A stretch of DNA of 26,526 nt from Bacteroidota bacterium (GTDB lineage: Bacteria; Bacteroidota; Bacteroidia; Bacteroidales; F082), in contig NYYH01000028.1 of NCBI GenBank assembly GCA_002686705.1, positions 12,972-39,497 of the forward strand. The letters are read 5' to 3'. The position numbers and the translations under genes were made by a program. Shown here piece by piece: positions 3,068 to 21,283 of this stretch (positions are counted from its first letter, which is position 1; every line of letters starts with the position of its first letter). The notes beneath the pieces were generated by a model. The model did not search any database. It was not told the DNA's origin and saw nothing but the letters and a program-made list of their open reading frames with translations.

Positions 3068-3771
3068 TTATTCATCGGTTACTAATCTATAACCAGCTCC
3101 ATGGTGAGTAATAATTTTTATTTGTTTATCACGCGAAAGAAGCTTTCTGAGTTTAGCAACATATACATCCATACTTCTGCTAGTGAAATAATTAGCATCA
3201 CCCCATATTGTATTTAAGGCAACTGCTTTAGGAAGTATTTCGCCTTTCTGCTCAAGCAGCATTTTTAACAACTCACATTCCTTGGGAGAAAGCGTTTGTT
3301 TATTGCTATCGTTTTTATACGACAAGCTTCTTGTTTTATAGTTAAAATTAAAATTATTAATTGGAAAGATTTCAATGTTTTGGCCTATATTACCTGAAAT
3401 TCCTCTACTTAGAACTGCTTTTATTTTGTAAAGCAATATCTCCGAATCAAATGGCTTTGTAATATAATCATCAGCTCCGGTTTTATACCCTTCAACAATA
3501 TCGTTTCTTAAAGTTTTTGCAGTAATAAATATAAAAGGAACATTTGAATCAGCTTTTTTATACTATTAGCGATTGAGAAGCCGTCAATATTAGGTAGCAT
3601 AACATCTAAAAGCACAAGGTCGTAAGCATTAGACTCAAATTTTGGCATTGCCTCTTTTCCATCATCAACCCAATCAACCGAAAAATCGTTTAATTCGAGA
3701 TATGATTTTAACACAGTGCCAAAATTGATGTCGTCCTCAACAAGTAGAAGTTTGTAATTTTTCTTTTTCAT
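3068..3771 (-). pseudogene. OmpR/PhoB-family response regulator, RprY-like, split by a -1 frameshift
   Basis: Two minus-strand frames make one regulator. The upstream frame (3771 to 3508) carries a receiver domain with the acidic pair D13/D14 and the phosphoacceptor D56 in 'LLDVMLP'. The downstream frame carries the rest of the receiver ('FITAK', 'GADDYITKPF') and an OmpR-type winged helix ending 'SRSMDVYVAKLRKLL...HHGAGYRL'. The frames join at the T6 run 3554-3559 (A6 on the coding strand). Adding one base there restores 705 nt, or 234 aa, the normal size for this family, with the expected 'IKKADSNVPFIFITAKTL' in the middle. The gene sits 16 bases downstream of its cognate kinase gene. The receiver resembles RprY of Bacteroides. 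As written the gene would give a truncated receiver; a sequencing indel in a homopolymer is a strong alternative to a real pseudogene. Confidence 0.88.
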
Positions 3772-3787
3772 CCCACAATCTTATAAT

Positions 3788-5497
3788 TTATTGCTCTGTC
3801 ATACAATTTAACATAATTGTAAAAGTGCTTCCATTGTCAGGTTCACTCATTACACTTATGCTACCTTTATGTGCTTCAATAACAGCTTTAACATAGCTGA
3901 GGCCTAAACCAAAACCCTTAATATTATGAATATTCCCCATTGGTTTTCTGTAAAATTTATCAAATATATGCATTTGTACGTCCTTGGTCATTCCTACACC
4001 GTTATCTGAAACACGAATGCACAACATATTTTGTTGATTATAAGTTTCAACAAGTATATCTGGCGTTTTATTAGTATATTTTATTGCATTATCAAACAAG
4101 TTATTCATCACATTTGCAAAATGAACCTCATCAATATTTAATATAAAATTAGTTGCTCTGAGTGAAGATGATATTTTCCCAACATTCTTTTTAATAGAAA
4201 ATTTAGCAACATCTACGCAGTTTTGAATAATTTCGTGTACATCAGTTTCTTGCAAGGCTATCTGTAGTTTTCCTTGTTCAATCAAAGCCATTTGGAGCAC
4301 TCTTTCAACCTGGTTGTTCATGCGTTTATTTTCCTGTCTAATAATTTTCAAGTAGTAAACAGTAGATTTTTCAACACCCATTACTTTTGGAGATTCGAGT
4401 GCATCGGCAGCGAGTCCAATTGTAGCAATTGGGGTTTTAAATTCGTGTGTCATATTATTTATAAAATCCGACTTTATTTCACTTAATTTTTTCTGTTTCA
4501 AAATATAGTAAAGTGTTGAACCAAATGTTAATATTATTATAAGAGTGAAAATGACAGATCCAACAACCAATATGTAAACCTTCTTGTAAATGTGTGCATT
4601 TTTTCCAGGAAAGGAAATTACTAAGTACAAGTTTTTGGTAAAAATATCATCAGGATATACTTCTGTTCTATATTTGTCAGGCAACAATTCAGAATCCTCA
4701 GTAGATGAAGAAACAACAATTGTTGTATCATTTTCTTCTTTAATTAATTGATAATTAAAAGTGATGTTAATTCCATTATTTTCTAACGCATCTGAGATAT
4801 GATGATTGTATTTGAGCATTCTGTCTTTCAAATAGTTAATATTATCTTCTAAACTATATTCCAGTACCCATTGCTCAATGTTTTCATTAAAGATTTCTAT
4901 TTTGTGTTTTACCAATTCTTCTTTTTCAACCCGAAGCTTGTCCCTTTCTATATCGAGTATCCGTTTTAGAGAATCTTTGTTTTTAAAAAACATCATATAT
5001 TCATGCTTATCCTCAATATGTATAATATCATGTTCCATTTCTTTCAAATCTTTCTTGATAATTTGTGCCTCATTATCAAGAAAGTAGACATCATCTTTGT
5101 GGTTATATTTTTTAGGAGCTAATAAGCTAATAGTATCGAGGTCACTCAATAAGTCAATATAATCTTGAGTTTTGTCATCAAAATCTATCTTGTACTTAAG
5201 ATTTGAGATTTTAGGCACCTCAATAACTGATATCACTTCTGAAATTTTAGTTAACTCTTCTAAAGTCTCGGACTTAATGATTGAAGGTTTCGGGAGCTCA
5301 ATCTTTTCATCAATAAAATCATATACTTTTTTGCGTTCTACTTTTGCAAGTGCTGATTTCATTGATTCGTAAACCAGTAAGTCGAATCGTGCTTTTTCTG
5401 TTTCAATAGCATATTTTATCCATAACCACTGAATAAAGATCAATCCGAATAGGCTGATGATCATTAAAAATAATATTATTTGGAAACGTTTTTTCAT
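3788..5497 (-). CDS. Membrane sensor histidine kinase, RprX-like
   Basis: 569 aa. TM1 is at about 6-28 and TM2 at about 307-333, enclosing a periplasmic sensor of roughly 275 residues rich in Lys/Glu and likely helical/coiled (about 140-235). The kinase core is complete: phosphoacceptor H351 in 'NNMTHEFKTP', N-box 'NLFDNAIKYT' (466-475), G1 'VSDNGVGM' (496-503), F-box 'IFDKFYR' (511-517) and G2 'GFGLGLSYVKAV' (528-539). It should autophosphorylate on H351 and pass the phosphate to the regulator encoded 16 bases downstream. The sensor shows no PAS or CHASE motif that I recognise, so the stimulus is unknown; envelope stress is a guess from the secreted partner gene. Start ATG 5497-5495. A TAnnTTTG box lies 23 bases upstream (5520-5527). 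Confidence 0.93.
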   Translation of the reverse strand: MKKRFQIILFLMIISLFGLIFIQWLWIKYAIETEKARFDLLVYESMKSALAKVERKKVYDFIDEKIELPKPSIIKSETLEELTKISEVISVIEVPKISNLKYKIDFDDKTQDYIDLLSDLDTISLLAPKKYNHKDDVYFLDNEAQIIKKDLKEMEHDIIHIEDKHEYMMFFKNKDSLKRILDIERDKLRVEKEELVKHKIEIFNENIEQWVLEYSLEDNINYLKDRMLKYNHHISDALENNGINITFNYQLIKEENDTTIVVSSSTEDSELLPDKYRTEVYPDDIFTKNLYLVISFPGKNAHIYKKVYILVVGSVIFTLIIILTFGSTLYYILKQKKLSEIKSDFINNMTHEFKTPIATIGLAADALESPKVMGVEKSTVYYLKIIRQENKRMNNQVERVLQMALIEQGKLQIALQETDVHEIIQNCVDVAKFSIKKNVGKISSSLRATNFILNIDEVHFANVMNNLFDNAIKYTNKTPDILVETYNQQNMLCIRVSDNGVGMTKDVQMHIFDKFYRKPMGNIHNIKGFGLGLSYVKAVIEAHKGSISVMSEPDNGSTFTIMLNCMTEQ

Positions 5498-5519
5498 TTA
5501 ATTTTATCATATCGCAGGT

Positions 5520-5527
5520 CAAAAGTA
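5520..5527 (-). promoter_or_regulatory. Bacteroidota -7 promoter box for the kinase-regulator operon
   Basis: The minus strand reads TACTTTTG, an exact TAnnTTTG match, 23 bases before the kinase start. No TTG is present at the normal -33 spacing; the TTAAC repeats begin 22 bases further upstream, where an activator could replace the -33 contact. Confidence 0.5.
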
Positions 5528-5549
5528 ATAAATACAAGTACTATGATTT

Positions 5550-5591
5550 TTAACTTTAACCTTTCTTTAACCTTTTTTAACCCGTCTTAAC
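5550..5591 (+). promoter_or_regulatory. Five helically phased TTAAC direct repeats, candidate response-regulator operator
   Basis: TTAAC occurs at 5550, 5556, 5567, 5577 and 5587 (first base of each), so the last four copies start 11, 10 and 10 bases apart, one helical turn. Extended units read TTTAACC, TTTAACC, TTAACCC and TTAACTT. Tandem direct repeats about one turn apart are the usual operator form for OmpR/PhoB-family regulators, and such a regulator is encoded by the adjacent operon. The array lies between the -7 boxes of two divergent transcripts, 22 bases from each. Binding by this regulator is inference. Confidence 0.55.
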
Positions 5592-5613
5592 TTATGCATA
5601 ATTAATGCTTAGA

Positions 5614-5621
5614 TACATTTG
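5614..5621 (+). promoter_or_regulatory. Bacteroidota -7 promoter box for the secreted helical protein
   Basis: TACATTTG matches TAnnTTTG exactly and lies 28 bases before the ATG at 5650. The upstream in-frame ATG at 5605 precedes this box, so it cannot be the start if the box is used. No TTG occurs at -33; the last TTAAC repeat ends 22 bases upstream. Confidence 0.55.
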
Positions 5622-5649
5622 TATCCATAAACTTTTAAAATTTAAAGAA

Positions 5650-6636
5650 ATGAATAAACCAGTAATTATTGCAATAATTGCAACATTAGTAATGATGATT
5701 TCCTTTCCTGTAAACGTTTTAAGTCAAGAGAAAGAGAAAGAAGTAAAGGTTAAAACTGTTAAAATGGTTGATGGGAAGAAGGTAGTTAAAGACACTACAT
5801 TTACTGTTAAAGATGGTGAAAACGAGCCAGATATTATAAGAACTTTGTCATGGGTCTCAGAAAAAGATTCAGCAGGTTATATAACTATAGATCTTGAAAT
5901 GGATTCAATTGGTGGCAAAGATGGTCATAACAACGTTTTTATTTTCAAAAGTGGTAAAGATGGTGGTAAAAAATACAAGTATTTTTTCAGTGACGATGAT
6001 CTTAAAGATTGTGAACATAGTATTCAGGTTCTTGAGGATTTTGACTTTGAATTTGACGAAAGCAAATTAAAAGAGATTGAACTTAAGCTTGCTGAGCACA
6101 AAGATAAGTTACACGATATGAGGATCAAGTTTGACGGAGAGAATTTAGTAATGCTGAAGGAACTTGAAAAAATTAAAGAATTCGAGGAACTTGAAAATCT
6201 CGAAGAAATTATTGAGTTAAAGCACCTGCAAAAGATTAAGGAGTTTGAAAATATTGACATCCATATTCCGGAAATATCATATTTCCCAAATCACCATGAT
6301 TATTTTATTGATAGTCATCATATGCATGATAATGTAAGCGATAAGGAATTGCGTGATGCTGGTATCAAGAACAAACCCAATAAGCTTGAATTAACTGACT
6401 ACGACATAACTATTGATGATGGTGTAGTTGGACTTTCATTTGTCTTAGTTAGTGAGGGTACACCAAAAATTACAGTATTTAATTATTTTGGCGATAAAGT
6501 TTTTTCGGGTAAACCCGAGTTGATGAATGGTAAATATGTAATAAGGATTGACCTTAGTGCCAAGCAAAATGGAGTATATTATTTGCAGGCCACACAAAAG
6601 AATAGTTCATTCACAAAAAAGTTGAGAATACATTAA
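5650..6636 (+). CDS. Secreted acidic helical protein with a T9SS-like C-terminal domain
   Basis: 328 aa when started at ATG 5650, chosen because a signal peptide (residues 1-25, cleavage near 'VLS-Q') follows at once and the promoter box lies at 5614-5621. Residues 27-115 are a charged, probably beta-rich region. Residues about 138-202 form a Lys/Glu/Leu heptad-like helix, likely a coiled coil. A His cluster follows (H215, H216, H223, H224, H226). The last ~75 residues ('KITVFNYFGDKVFSG...NGVYYLQATQKNSSFTKKLRIH') resemble the Ig-like type A sorting domain of type IX secretion substrates. The protein would therefore be exported and perhaps surface-attached. It is divergent from the kinase-regulator operon and shares its control region. 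The function is not recognised; a regulator-controlled periplasmic or surface stress protein is a hypothesis. Confidence 0.8.
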   Translation: MNKPVIIAIIATLVMMISFPVNVLSQEKEKEVKVKTVKMVDGKKVVKDTTFTVKDGENEPDIIRTLSWVSEKDSAGYITIDLEMDSIGGKDGHNNVFIFKSGKDGGKKYKYFFSDDDLKDCEHSIQVLEDFDFEFDESKLKEIELKLAEHKDKLHDMRIKFDGENLVMLKELEKIKEFEELENLEEIIELKHLQKIKEFENIDIHIPEISYFPNHHDYFIDSHHMHDNVSDKELRDAGIKNKPNKLELTDYDITIDDGVVGLSFVLVSEGTPKITVFNYFGDKVFSGKPELMNGKYVIRIDLSAKQNGVYYLQATQKNSSFTKKLRIH

Positions 6637-12360: not shown

Positions 12361-12432
12361 GTACAGTATTTGCATTTTTTAAGTAAACCGCAAAATTAAA
12401 CAATGTTTACAATTGCACAACATATCGTTAAA

Positions 12433-13857
12433 ATGGAAACTCTAAAATTTTATTATCGCTACCTTGTATTTATATTAATTGTTGTTGGATTAGGGTCATG
12501 TTCAAGTACGAGCAATCTGCCAGCTGATGATGTTTATTATTCTTCAAAAGCTAAAAATCCAACTCAGTATAACTACGATGATTTTAAAAAGAATGCTCAA
12601 AATCATTCTGATAACAATGTCGATAAAGGTAAGTACTCGGGTGAATATGATTCGGACTATTCAACGGATGTTGGTGCAGCTGCAGTAACAGGTAATGTAA
12701 CTGATAGTGTAGATAATTCAGAATACGAATTTATTGACGAATATTATGATTCCGATTACGCTTCACGGATCAACAGGTTTAATGATAACGGAAGTAGCGA
12801 TGATTATTATGATGAAAGTTATACAAGCAGTGGATGTTGTTCAAGCCCTAACTTTTCATTAAGTTTTGGAATGGGTATGGGATATGGTTGGGGCATGGGC
12901 TTTAACTACGGCTGGCCATATTATAGCTGGGGATATCCGTATTATGGATGGGGATATCCGTATTACGGATGGGGATACCCTTATTACGGAAGCTATTGGG
13001 CAGGTTATAATAATGGTTATTGGAATGGGTACAGAGATGGATATTATAATGGAGGAGGTGGTTACTATCCAGGGGGCTATTATCCTGATTACGGTTATAC
13101 AGCAGCATATAGTCCTCGTGGAAGAGGTGCTGGAGGCAGTTCAATTCCTAGGTCTGGTGGACGATCAGGAAATATTTCAAGCTCAGGTGCCAAAATGCTA
13201 AGTGATGACGAAAATGTACTTGCACGAAGTGGTAGTCTGGCAGGCGGTACAGCTTCAGTAGTAAAATCTGGAGATAATTCAGAAACGTTAAGCCCTAAAA
13301 GCAGAACTGAAAGTGCAAAGCGTAGCCCTATTGAAGCAAGGAAACAATCTGAACCAACTAAATTGAGGAAACCTGGACAAGAAATGCAGAGTGATCCATC
13401 TAAGGCAGCAATGCGCCCATCAAAACAGACTTCAAAACGTGCAACACAACGGAGCAAAACACCCAGGTATCAAAAACCAAAGTCGTACGAAAGTTTACCT
13501 TCAAGGCAACCTCGAACAAGTAAAGAATATGTAAGACAGGCAAAGCCTAATAGTAAAACAAAAACTACACGAAGTGCCAATACTTTTAACAGGTCGTTAA
13601 AACAAAATAGTTCGAGAAGTAATTATTCAGCTCCGAGAACTAACTCATCCTCCAGAAATAGTAGCGTAAAAACGCGCACAAAATCAGCACCTAAGAGTTA
13701 TCGGGCACCAACAACAAGAAGTAACTCTTCGAAAAGTTACAGTAAACCTACAAGGAGTTACAGCTCACCATCAAAAAGTAGTAGTTCTGGTGGTGGTAGA
13801 AGTAGCAGTTCAGGAGGAGGATCTTCGACCTCAAGAAGTAGTGGTGGAAGAAGATAA
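12433..13857 (+). CDS. Low-complexity Tyr/Gly- and Ser/Arg-rich lipoprotein
   Basis: 474 aa from ATG 12433, chosen over the in-frame ATG at 12403 because it places a short basic region directly before the hydrophobic core and lipobox 'GLGSC' (C23). Residues about 25-125 are Asp/Tyr/Ser-rich. A central Tyr/Trp/Gly stretch holds three copies of the heptad WGYPYYG and looks like an aromatic, possibly amyloid- or adhesive-like segment. From about residue 225 to the end the protein is Ser/Arg/Lys/Pro-rich and basic, ending in Gly/Ser blocks and 'GGRR'. No catalytic domain is visible. A surface or periplasmic structural lipoprotein is likely; the precise role is unknown. Codon use and both flanking genes look ordinary for the segment. 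Confidence 0.82.
   Translation: METLKFYYRYLVFILIVVGLGSCSSTSNLPADDVYYSSKAKNPTQYNYDDFKKNAQNHSDNNVDKGKYSGEYDSDYSTDVGAAAVTGNVTDSVDNSEYEFIDEYYDSDYASRINRFNDNGSSDDYYDESYTSSGCCSSPNFSLSFGMGMGYGWGMGFNYGWPYYSWGYPYYGWGYPYYGWGYPYYGSYWAGYNNGYWNGYRDGYYNGGGGYYPGGYYPDYGYTAAYSPRGRGAGGSSIPRSGGRSGNISSSGAKMLSDDENVLARSGSLAGGTASVVKSGDNSETLSPKSRTESAKRSPIEARKQSEPTKLRKPGQEMQSDPSKAAMRPSKQTSKRATQRSKTPRYQKPKSYESLPSRQPRTSKEYVRQAKPNSKTKTTRSANTFNRSLKQNSSRSNYSAPRTNSSSRNSSVKTRTKSAPKSYRAPTTRSNSSKSYSKPTRSYSSPSKSSSSGGGRSSSSGGGSSTSRSSGGRR
12928..12990 (+). repeat. Three tandem 21-bp units encoding WGYPYYG
   Basis: Units start at 12928, 12949 and 12970; each encodes Trp-Gly-Tyr-Pro-Tyr-Tyr-Gly, with only synonymous third-base differences between copies. 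Near-identity of DNA suggests recent duplication or slippage; copy number may vary between strains. Confidence 0.9.
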
Positions 13858-19566: not shown

Positions 19567-20319
19567 TTATTTAGTCTTTTGTGTAACAGTCACCCAAGAT
19601 TTGTCAAAGCCCAAGGATTTCAATACTTGCTCCTTGTCTAGTGGTTTAGGTTGTTTTATGTTTACTATTAACCCTTTTTCTGGAACATTCTCAATTATTG
19701 TAAACTGTGAACCATGTGGCTGCCAAGTAAAAGTATGCTCTCCTGTTTTCTTACAAGTTCCAACAAGGTTATTATTCTTATTCCATTCCCAAATGTAAAG
19801 TTCATAATCATAACGAATAGTGTCAAACTCAAATACTACAACTTCTGTTAAATCATTGGATTTGATTAGTACAACTGTACGTAAATGTTTAAACTTTTCT
19901 CGAATTGCTGATACCCTCTCATTCCATATCTCAAGTACAAGTTTTCCAATAAATCCTGCATCTGCTTTTTGATCACTACGTTCTCCAAAAGAATAATTTG
20001 GAGAGTTACGCCCTGATATTAACCTTACTTTTTTTTGAGTAGATGGCCTAGTTGCCTTAACTGTTTTTGCACCCCAAGCTGTGTTTCCTTTTACAACATC
20101 ATCAAGCCCCACATTGGATGGTTTCCAATCAGCACCAATACAGTTTGCGAAAATATTCTCCCATTCCGAACCTTCAAGTTCTGATTTTCCCTTTGAGGCA
20201 AGTAAGTATATTAACTCTTTACCAAGTAAAAAGGGAAATTCCTTCGGAAATTCATTAAGTGGAAATGCCGAAACTGATTTATGTACTGTTCTTAATTTGG
20301 GGGATTTATTATTCTCCAT
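19567..20319 (-). CDS. Putative type II restriction endonuclease
   Basis: 250 aa, no signal peptide. It is called from context: the start overlaps the end of a C5-cytosine methyltransferase gene by 11 bases in the same direction, the usual arrangement of a type II system. Internally, a helix with E53 ('GSEWENIFANCIGADW') precedes 'LDDVVKGNTAWGAKTVK' (72-88). This fits the spacing of a PD-(D/E)xK nuclease core (D73/D74, then GxK with K85), although the usual acidic residue before xK is Gly here. 'KVRLISGRNSPNYSFG' (97-111) follows. I do not recognise a named restriction-enzyme family or its target. An alternative is an accessory or control protein, but size and position favour the nuclease. 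Confidence 0.65.
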   Translation of the reverse strand: MENNKSPKLRTVHKSVSAFPLNEFPKEFPFLLGKELIYLLASKGKSELEGSEWENIFANCIGADWKPSNVGLDDVVKGNTAWGAKTVKATRPSTQKKVRLISGRNSPNYSFGERSDQKADAGFIGKLVLEIWNERVSAIREKFKHLRTVVLIKSNDLTEVVVFEFDTIRYDYELYIWEWNKNNNLVGTCKKTGEHTFTWQPHGSQFTIIENVPEKGLIVNIKQPKPLDKEQVLKSLGFDKSWVTVTQKTK

Positions 20320-21283
20320 AACCTATTTCATATTCCCTTAAAACTAAATCCATTTGCATTGATGTTGCAACAAAAGGTAGTAACTTTAAGGTAACTGCTT
20401 TTACTACATTTACAGGTACTGCATTCCCAGCTTGTTTCTTAGCTTGACTATCAGATACAACAATTTTATAAGTATCTGGAAAACCTTGTAAACGTAACAT
20501 TTCTCTTGGTGTCAAACGTCTTTCTCCGTTTACGAGCAAATAATTATATGAAGCACCAGCACGAAGCGCACAAGAATATGGGTAAGAAGATATATTCCCA
20601 GATTTATTTTCGTGCCAAATAGATAATTTATATGCAGATTTATGTTTCTCTGTACGTTTTTTAGTAATATACTCTGAAGCAAAATGTTTCTTGTCAACTT
20701 TTTTCTCAATGATTTCAGTTAATGGTTTGAATGGCCTTATGGGAGAAGGGAAACTAAACAAAATAGGCTCCCTATGACCTACAATTATTACACGTTCGCG
20801 TTTTTGAGGAAGTCCGTAATCAAGAGCATTTAGTACTACATATTGTACGTTGTATCCTAATTCTTTCTCTAAGGTTTTAACAATAACTTTTAAGGTTTTC
20901 CCCCTATCATGACCAACTAATTGCTTTACATTTTCTAAAATAAATGCTTTCGGCTTTTTGTGTTTTATAATTCTAGCAATGTCAAAAAATAGAGTACCAC
21001 GGATATCATTAAATCCTTGCATTTGTCCAATAATACTAAATGGTTGGCAAGGAAAACCTGCAAATAAAATATCATGATCAGGAATATTTTTTTCGTCAAT
21101 TTTAGTTATATCACCTTCTGGTCTTTCACCAAAATTAGCTTCATAACTATCTTGACAATAAGCATCAATGTCTGAAGAAAATACACATTCTGGTATTAAG
21201 TCGTTTTCGACACAAGCCTGATCCATTGCGGTTCTAAAGCCTCCAATCCCACAAAATAAATCTATAAATTTTATTTTTTCCAA
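20309..21283 (-). CDS. DNA (cytosine-5-)-methyltransferase of a type II restriction-modification system
   Basis: 324 aa. The canonical motifs are in order: I 'DLFCGIGGF' (8-16), IV 'GFPCQPFS' (76-83) with catalytic C79, VI 'ENV' (117-119), VIII 'QKRERV' (160-165), IX 'RLTPREMLRLQGFP' (256-269) and X 'QAGNAVPVNVV' (284-294). The target recognition region (about 175-255) is short, so a short recognition site is likely; the sequence itself cannot be read from this. It methylates C5 of cytosine to protect host DNA from the partner nuclease encoded immediately downstream. A TAnnTTTG box lies 20 bases upstream (21303-21310). No C-protein gene or Vsr endonuclease gene is beside it. Confidence 0.95.
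   Translation of the reverse strand: MEKIKFIDLFCGIGGFRTAMDQACVENDLIPECVFSSDIDAYCQDSYEANFGERPEGDITKIDEKNIPDHDILFAGFPCQPFSIIGQMQGFNDIRGTLFFDIARIIKHKKPKAFILENVKQLVGHDRGKTLKVIVKTLEKELGYNVQYVVLNALDYGLPQKRERVIIVGHREPILFSFPSPIRPFKPLTEIIEKKVDKKHFASEYITKKRTEKHKSAYKLSIWHENKSGNISSYPYSCALRAGASYNYLLVNGERRLTPREMLRLQGFPDTYKIVVSDSQAKKQAGNAVPVNVVKAVTLKLLPFVATSMQMDLVLREYEIGYGE

What the first reader, a model, noticed from the sequence alone, without database searches (positions are those of the whole stretch)
5498..5649. Phased TTAAC repeats between a two-component operon and a divergent secreted-protein gene
Seen directly: TTAAC at 5550, 5556, 5567, 5577 and 5587; the last four are 11, 10 and 10 bases apart. 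Opposing TAnnTTTG boxes lie at 5520-5527 (minus) and 5614-5621 (plus), each 22 bases from the array, and neither has a TTG at the normal -33 spacing. Known: OmpR/PhoB-family regulators bind tandem direct repeats spaced about one helical turn and often replace the -35 contact. Inference: the regulator encoded at 3068-3771 binds here, activates the secreted protein and controls its own operon.
Basis: partly seen in the sequence, partly recalled or inferred. Interest (0 to 1): 0.72.

Follow-up and report, generated by a model that had tools for sequence, protein, structure and literature searches.

The report
Shared operator between paired bacterial promoters
A short stretch of DNA carrying four evenly spaced repeats sits between two back-to-back genes and is preserved in relatives, most likely as the docking site for a stress-sensing switch protein that turns on an exported protein and controls its own genes.

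Summary
In detail: TTAAC at 5550, 5556, 5567, 5577 and 5587, far above chance. Loci were selected by the secreted protein, not by DNA. In 17 of the 20 with upstream sequence in view, four repeats spaced 11/10/10 are kept exactly. In 18 of 18 (window included) the sigma box TAnnTTTG starts exactly 22 bp after the last repeat, although those 22 bp are not conserved in sequence. A second box on the other strand lies 27-28 bp before the core in 16 of 17.

Eight of nine host genomes tested hold a second array of the same design between a paralogous kinase-regulator pair and another small exported protein. Across 17 genomes, repeat pairs sit 22 bp from the box in 58 of 117 matches. Recurrent targets include moxR, whose promoter Riemerella PhoP binds (motif TTTAACA) and which falls in the phoP mutant. 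RprY-like regulator operons carry the pair at their own promoter in 21 of 25 cases, other OmpR-type operons in 1 of 18.

Best reading: an operator for an RprY/PhoP-like response regulator that activates the exported protein and is autoregulatory. Binding and direction of control are inferred. The window's own regulator gene is frame-broken; intact copies exist in relatives.

The parts
5556..5591 (+). core operator: TTAAC at 5556, 5567, 5577, 5587 (gaps 11, 10, 10)
   Evidence: exact in 17 of 20 relatives with upstream sequence in view; chance test
5550..5554 (+). extra TTAAC copy 6 bp before the core, lineage-limited
   Evidence: present in 7 of 18 loci
5614..5621 (+). TACATTTG, -7 box of the secreted-protein promoter, 22 bp after the core
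   Evidence: gap exactly 22 in 18 of 18 loci
5520..5527 (-). TACTTTTG, -7 box of the kinase-regulator promoter, 28 bp before the core
   Evidence: gap 27-28 in 16 of 17 loci with upstream sequence
3788..5497 (-). sensor histidine kinase (HisKA, HATPase_c)
   Evidence: relatives
3508..3771 (-). response regulator, first piece (receiver domain), frame-broken
   Evidence: Response_reg; uninterrupted in relatives
3068..3562 (-). response regulator, second piece in another frame (end of receiver plus winged-helix DNA-binding domain; listed ORF 3068-3436)
   Evidence: Trans_reg_C; open frame
5650..6636 (+). secreted protein with N-terminal hydrophobic signal-like stretch and C-terminal T9SS-type sorting domain (328 aa from the ATG at 5650)
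   Evidence: Por_Secre_tail; homologues; structure

Best explanation
The array is the operator of a divergent, autoregulated two-component locus. Two head-to-tail dimers of the RprY/PhoP-like (OmpR-family) response regulator encoded at 3068-3771 fill the four half-sites on one face of the helix. The half-site nearest the secreted-protein gene ends 22 bp before the TAnnTTTG box, about where a -33 element would lie, so bound regulator can contact RNA polymerase and activate that gene. On the other side the same dimers sit 28 bp from the kinase promoter and control the kinase-regulator operon. Shown here: the anatomy, its conservation, the fixed spacings, the family of the regulator, and recurrence of the same grammar at moxR and at RprY-like operons. 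Inferred: binding, phosphorylation dependence, activation, and the envelope-stress signal.
For: Array above chance. In loci fetched by protein only, the four-repeat core is exact in 15 of 15 with the kinase divergent, and in 17 of 20 in all. The + box gap is 22 bp in 18 of 18 while the gap's sequence has background identity (0.37 among 11 nonredundant loci). No TTG at 18-22 bp from the + box in 18 of 18. A second array (11, 10, 11) of identical layout lies at a paralogous kinase-regulator operon in 8 of 9 genomes, + gap 22 in 8 of 8. Gap histogram in 17 genomes: 22 bp = 58 of 117, every other gap at most 6; 17 of the 58 are the secreted-gene arrays by which the genomes were chosen, leaving 41 of 100. 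Third target moxR at gap 22, read in 14 of 17 genomes. Riemerella PhoP: motif TTTAACA, EMSA on the moxR promoter, moxR -2.03 log2 in the phoP mutant (PMC9603813). RprY-like operons with the repeat pair 21 of 25, other OmpR-type operons 1 of 18. Shared recognition helix RSMDV(Y/F)..K(L/I)RK, present in the window's second piece.
Against: No binding or expression data for this locus. The window's regulator reading frame is broken. A paralogous regulator with a nearly identical recognition helix could bind instead. Six of the 18 loci do have a TTG or TTTG 16-17 bp upstream of the + box, and L012 has one 22 bp from the minus box, so a -33-like contact is not excluded everywhere. L007 and L014 have a reduced or degenerate array and no kinase in several kb upstream; L016 is degenerate too, but its contig ends there. 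The minus box is missing in L005. Several loci are near-copies (L019-L021, L006/L008), so counts are not independent events. 15 of the first 17 control operons have no detected adjacent upstream kinase; of the three controls with one, one has the pair. The 12 phylum genomes used for the RprY test were picked because they had TTAAC-box hits.
Confidence: 0.84

Rival explanations
1. The operator is bound mainly by the paralogous RprY-like regulator of the second system, or by both, so the two systems form one cross-connected regulon.
For: Both regulators keep the same recognition-helix signature and both operators are TTAAC tandems with a 22-bp promoter gap.
Against: The two operators differ: mostly TTAACC with spacing 11/10/10 versus mostly TTAACA with 11/10/11. 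RR1 and RR2 are separate well-supported clades. G006 keeps the first array although the repeat-pattern scan found no second one there.
Confidence: 0.25
2. The array is a repressor operator: the regulator shuts the kinase operon and/or the secreted gene.
For: Tandem sites near both promoters; the 27-28 bp geometry with reversed repeat direction at kinase promoters is distinct from the 22-bp one. Riemerella PhoP has both up- and down-regulated direct targets.
Against: An invariant 22-bp phase and no TTG at 18-22 bp fit activation; moxR falls in the Riemerella phoP mutant and has the same phase in the genomes here.
Confidence: 0.12
3. In this organism the regulator is a true pseudogene and the array is a relic or is served by the paralogue.
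For: The regulator is split in two frames.
Against: The break lies in a homopolymer-rich stretch, where assembly errors are common (my judgement); 13 relatives have a full-length frame and L009's is open up to its contig end; kinase, array and secreted gene are intact here.
Confidence: 0.15
4. The repeats are not a protein site but a curved-DNA or composition effect of AT-rich sequence.
For: The intergenic region is 23% GC.
Against: 0 of 20,000 shuffles; reversed-pattern controls 3 against 38, 22 against 131 and 35 against 113 hits (my column sums); fixed-length but unconserved gap.
Confidence: 0.02

Closest known systems
PhoPR of Riemerella anatipestifer (PMC9603813, passages read)
   Same: Bacteroidota two-component system; DAP-seq core TTTAACA; binds upstream of its own operon; binds the moxR promoter, and moxR falls in the phoP mutant; lists GLPGLI-family genes as directly upregulated
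   Different: The text does not contain 'direct repeat' (0 occurrences), and the passages seen give no promoter distance and no divergent T9SS-type gene; I had no sequence of this PhoP, so orthology is untested. Only 50 of 764 DAP-seq genes changed in the mutant
RprXY of Bacteroides and Porphyromonas
   Same: Best NCBIfam model for the intact orthologue (L001) and for its paralogue (L064) is RprY
   Different: Scores 246 and 285 bits against a cut-off of 370, so neither is called RprY. The words motif and consensus do not occur in the two RprY papers searched
E. coli PhoB / OmpR / ArcA operators (recalled; only the ArcA likeness of the Riemerella motif is from PMC9603813)
   Same: Direct repeats at about one helical turn, with the proximal site overlapping the -35 region
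   Different: Different promoter (TAnnTTTG, Bacteroidota sigma), four half-sites, divergent layout
CpxRA-cpxP and ZraSR-zraP (recalled)
   Same: Kinase-regulator operon divergent from an exported protein gene under the same regulator
   Different: No CpxP/Zra-type Pfam domain in the secreted protein; it carries a T9SS-type tail

Membership tests
OmpR/PhoB response regulators | receiver domain plus winged-helix Trans_reg_C | tested here: met
   Response_reg 54.1 bits and Trans_reg_C 64.4 bits, on two frame-broken pieces; uninterrupted in relatives
OmpR/PhoB operators | tandem direct repeats about one helical turn apart near the -35 region | tested here: met
   gaps 11, 10, 10; last repeat 22 bp from the -7 box in 18 of 18
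RprY (NCBIfam NF051850) | score above curated cut-off 370 | tested here: not met
   L001 orthologue 246.3, L064 paralogue 285.4; the window's own pieces were not scored
Riemerella PhoP-type regulon | TTTAAC core motif | tested here: met
   TTTAAC at 5549, 5555, 5566, 5576; motif TTTAACA in PMC9603813
Riemerella PhoP-type regulon | moxR as a direct target | tested here: inconclusive
   repeat pair and box at moxR in 14 relative genomes; the window's own genome is not held
Riemerella PhoP-type regulon | in vitro binding by the regulator | not testable with these tools
   needs protein
CpxP-like feedback proteins | exported protein gene divergent from the kinase-regulator operon, operator between them | tested here: met
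   layout
CpxP-like feedback proteins | CpxP/Spy (LTXXQ) domain | tested here: not met
   only Por_Secre_tail found
T9SS type A substrates | C-terminal sorting domain above cut-off | tested here: inconclusive
   Pfam PF18962 27.1 against 27; TIGR04183 21.8 against 23; fold hits include T9SS substrate tails 8glk_D (E 1.8e-3) and 8qb1_A (E 6.3e-3), but the top hits are DUF3244 folds

The most novel reading that the evidence does not exclude
The window shows one instance of a phylum-wide operator code of Bacteroidota. RprY/PhoP-like regulators with the helix RSMDV(Y/F)..K(L/I)RK read two to four TTAAC repeats 10-11 bp apart, placed 21-22 bp from TAnnTTTG at activated targets and 27-28 bp (reversed) at their own kinase promoters. 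Together they run an envelope-stress regulon (MoxR-Bat, DegP/HtrA, GLPGLI and T9SS-type exported proteins), a counterpart of Cpx/sigma-E, with the divergent exported protein possibly acting as a surface feedback partner of the kinase.
Probability: 0.5. Interest if true: 0.78.

Novelty: new variant of a known kind. Interest (0 to 1): 0.6.

Why it matters
In the passages seen, DNA sites of OmpR-family regulators of Bacteroidota are given as a short motif at most. Here sequence comparison alone yields a full promoter rule (repeat, phase, distance to the sigma box, orientation) and points to a shared set of targets that agrees with one experimental data set. It makes regulon prediction testable in uncultured Bacteroidota and gives a concrete candidate for how this phylum senses envelope stress.

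Tried and rejected
A chance or composition origin of the array was rejected by shuffles and reversed-pattern controls. The idea that the conserved unit is the five-copy array was rejected: the 5550 copy is in 7 of 18 loci. The idea that the four-copy array itself is phylum-wide was rejected: with the box it occurs in 3 of 395 genomes (G001 itself, G284, G292); only the two-copy rule is widespread, and even that (gap 18-26) matched only 59 of 198 sampled genomes. Around the G284 and G292 arrays I saw, reading translations by eye, no adjacent kinase-regulator pair. A first automatic search for operon promoters walked through neighbouring coaE genes and missed the kinase promoters; it was replaced by a fixed 150-bp rule applied to both groups. 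That first count was 21 of 23 and 1 of 17; checking it, I found that two weaker RprY-like hits and one control at a contig edge had been left out, fetched them, and none has the pair, giving 21 of 25 and 1 of 18; the confidence was lowered from 0.85 to 0.84 for this. The secreted protein's function stayed open: only residues about 231-328 of the model are confident, and the PDB search points to beta-sandwich domains. RprY papers gave no motif; PMC3764172 (HaeR) likewise gave no site; PMC10197871 was irrelevant. An earlier count said 132 and 24 hits; recounting the columns gives 131 and 22.

Not in print: nine library searches listed no paper whose title or abstract start describes tandem TTAAC with a fixed distance to TAnnTTTG; I opened passages of seven papers only, and the library is open-access only.

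Full report
WHAT IS THERE. The intergenic region 5498-5649 lies between a histidine kinase (3788-5497, minus) followed by a response regulator, and a divergent secreted-protein gene (5650-6636, plus). TTAAC occurs at 5550, 5556, 5567, 5577 and 5587. None of 20,000 dinucleotide shuffles of the region had three or more copies at 10/11-bp spacing, and no other 5-mer in the window forms an array of four or more. Both TAnnTTTG boxes are present as described, with no TTG 16-25 bp upstream of either. The regulator is split over two frames: the receiver piece at 3508-3771, and the remainder with the DNA-binding domain in a frame open from 3562 down to 3068. Thirteen relatives have a full-length regulator frame; that of L009 is open up to its contig end.

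CONSERVATION. I fetched relatives by the secreted protein alone (27 loci from genome contigs), so the DNA array played no part in the choice. Fifteen loci show the kinase divergent from the secreted gene (14 of them with at least part of the regulator; L002 is cut by its contig end), and all fifteen have the exact four-repeat core, gaps 11, 10, 10. Five more loci have upstream sequence but no kinase match: L010 and L013 have the exact core, L007 has three repeats (10, 10), and L014 and L016 have a degenerate form (two TTAAC 20 bp apart). In L010, L013 and L016 the contig ends within about 330 bp upstream, so a kinase could not be seen; L007 and L014 have several kb without one. The remaining seven loci (L017, L018, L023-L027) matched only part of the protein or did not match again, and their upstream regions were not examined. 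That makes 17 of 20 with the exact core. Some are near-copies (L019-L021; L006 and L008), so these are not independent events.

SPACING. In all 18 sequences with the core (window included) the plus TAnnTTTG box starts exactly 22 bp after the last repeat. The 22 bp themselves have only 0.37 mean pairwise identity among 11 nonredundant loci, against 0.74 in the spacers inside the core and 0.86 in the box. The repeats are identical by construction of that alignment. So the length is fixed while the sequence is free, which is what a protein-polymerase contact would require. No locus has TTG 18-22 bp upstream of the plus box, but six of 18 have a TTG or TTTG at 16-17 bp. On the minus side a TAnnTTTG box lies 27-28 bp from the core in 16 of 17 sequences with upstream DNA; L005 lacks it. 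A TSS study in Flavobacterium psychrophilum places this box at -12 to -5 (PMC9723704, passages); the last TTAAC would then lie at -39 to -35.

A SECOND SYSTEM OF THE SAME DESIGN. Scanning nine of the host genomes for three tandem repeats gave 38 hits against 3 for the reversed pattern (column sums). All nine have the array of the secreted gene, and eight (not G006) have a second four-repeat array. In all eight it lies between a paralogous kinase-regulator operon and a divergent 79-116-residue exported Lys/Asp/Cys-rich protein, with gaps 11, 10, 11, the plus box at 22 bp in 8 of 8 and the minus box at 26-28 bp in 8 of 8. A few other three-repeat hits lie elsewhere (G001:C29, G002:C48, G002:C105, G004:C31).

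A GENOME-WIDE RULE. In 17 genomes I searched TTAAC-(5,6)-TTAAC-(10 to 40)-TAnnTTTG: 131 hits against 22 for the reversed control (column sums). Of 117 distinct last-pair matches 58 have a gap of 22; no other gap exceeds 6. The 17 genomes were chosen because they hold the secreted-gene locus, which supplies 17 of the 58; without these it is 41 of 100. Orthologous promoters recur across genomes, so matches are not independent. Besides the two systems, the most frequent gap-22 target is a MoxR-type AAA+ ATPase gene, read directly in 14 of the 17 genomes (family AAA_3 confirmed on one, L103); two more (G404, G410) were judged by promoter likeness only. Single gap-22 cases include a DegP/HtrA-type protease divergent from dapF (L113), a HYC_CC_PP protein (L118), and outer-membrane or lipoprotein-like genes. 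The DegP case scores 410.9 against a cut-off of 416.2 for TIGR02037. Others (such as L115 and L116) do not obviously concern the envelope.

ACROSS THE PHYLUM. In 198 genomes (G001 among them) the pattern with gaps 18-26 matched in 59 genomes, 113 matches against 35 for the reversed control (column sums). Of the 107 matches outside G001, 41 have gap 22, 29 have gap 21 and the remaining 37 are spread over seven other gaps. Among the 29 loci inspected (genes read by eye), moxR appears again at gap 22 (L147). Five loci (L133-L136, L143) have the repeats in the degP-dapF divergent promoter, though there the repeats face dapF, at gaps 25 or 21. The other loci lead to assorted genes, many of them lipoprotein or exported-protein genes.

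THE REGULATOR. The intact orthologue (L001) and the paralogue (L064) both score best to RprY in NCBIfam, below its cut-off. RprY-like regulators were found in 12 of 12 phylum genomes tested. I then applied one fixed rule (150 bp upstream of the regulator or its adjacent kinase) to all RprY-like hits and 63 other than RR1 and RR2. 21 of 25 operons carry a TTAAC pair at 10/11 bp, 18 of those 21 with the minus box at 27-29 bp, against 1 of 18 other OmpR-type operons. Caveats: the 12 genomes had been picked for TTAAC-box hits; 15 of the 18 controls have no detected adjacent upstream kinase; of the three that do (L191, L205, L215), L191 has the pair with the same 27-bp geometry. In a 48-sequence tree (13 RR1, 8 RR2, 19 of the other RprY-like, 8 controls) RR1 and RR2 are separate clades (support 100/100 and 100/99). 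RR1 groups with six kinase-linked regulators of other phylum genomes and one control (100/99), but several long branches make some placements unsure. In that set the signature RSMDV(Y/F) is present in all RR1, all RR2 and 16 of 19 others; the exceptions are L183 and L211 (RSLDV) and L212 (RTIDN). Of the four operons without a pair, L211 has RSLDV, L212 and L214 have RTIDN, and L213's helix was not read. One control, L192, has the signature without repeats; it has no detected adjacent upstream kinase. The window's second piece carries the signature.

EXPERIMENTAL PRECEDENT. In Riemerella anatipestifer, DAP-seq of PhoP gave the core TTTAACA, EMSA showed binding upstream of its own operon and at moxR, and moxR, batA, batC and GLPGLI-family genes fell in the phoP mutant (PMC9603813, passages). 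The same paper finds only 50 of 764 DAP-seq genes changed, more of them up than down. In L185 and L186 the gene facing the RprY-like operon, or close behind it, is a GLPGLI gene. In Porphyromonas gingivalis a PG0720 study lists GLPGLI and VWA genes with negative values (PMC8757827, one table passage). These agree with the present rule but concern other organisms, and I had no sequence of either regulator.

HOW IT MOST LIKELY WORKS. Four half-sites for two head-to-tail regulator dimers, the proximal one taking the place of the -33 contact of the secreted-protein promoter, with the kinase-regulator promoter under the same operator. Activation of the secreted gene is the likelier sign, by the 22-bp phase and the moxR precedent. 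The sign of autoregulation is open. The signal is unknown; the target set suggests envelope or oxidative stress (inference).

NOVELTY. The system is of a known kind (OmpR-family, autoregulated, divergent). The tandem phased architecture, its fixed distance to the Bacteroidota sigma box and the recurrence at moxR across uncultured lineages did not show up in nine library searches or in the passages opened. PhoB/OmpR and CpxP/ZraP comparisons are from recall.

Noticed in passing
window 3508-3771 and 3068-3562 (minus): The response regulator is split by a frame break in a homopolymer-rich stretch; intact copies exist in relatives, so it may be an assembly error or a recent loss.
   Followed up: partly
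window 20309-21283 and 19567-20319 (minus): A C-5 cytosine DNA methyltransferase (Pfam DNA_methylase, PADLOC type II MTase) overlaps a 250-aa gene without any Pfam or PADLOC match at E 0.001, a possible unclassified restriction partner.
   Followed up: partly
L062-L069, about 60-130 bp after the second array: A family of tiny exported Lys/Asp/Cys-rich proteins (79-116 aa), each divergent from the second kinase-regulator operon; the two members scanned (L064, L067) have no Pfam match above its cut-off.
   Followed up: partly
L073, L074, L116: An NtrC-like regulator gene divergent from an ABC transporter has TTAAC repeats in its promoter region in three genomes (three tandem copies in the two behind L073 and L074).
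   Followed up: no
L070-L072 (G284, G292): Four-repeat arrays with the box precede exported-protein genes in two genomes of the phylum sample, with no kinase-regulator pair seen next to them.
   Followed up: partly
window 12403-13857 (plus): A 484-aa Gly/Ser/Tyr-rich ORF, probably a lipoprotein, without any Pfam match at E 0.001.
   Followed up: no
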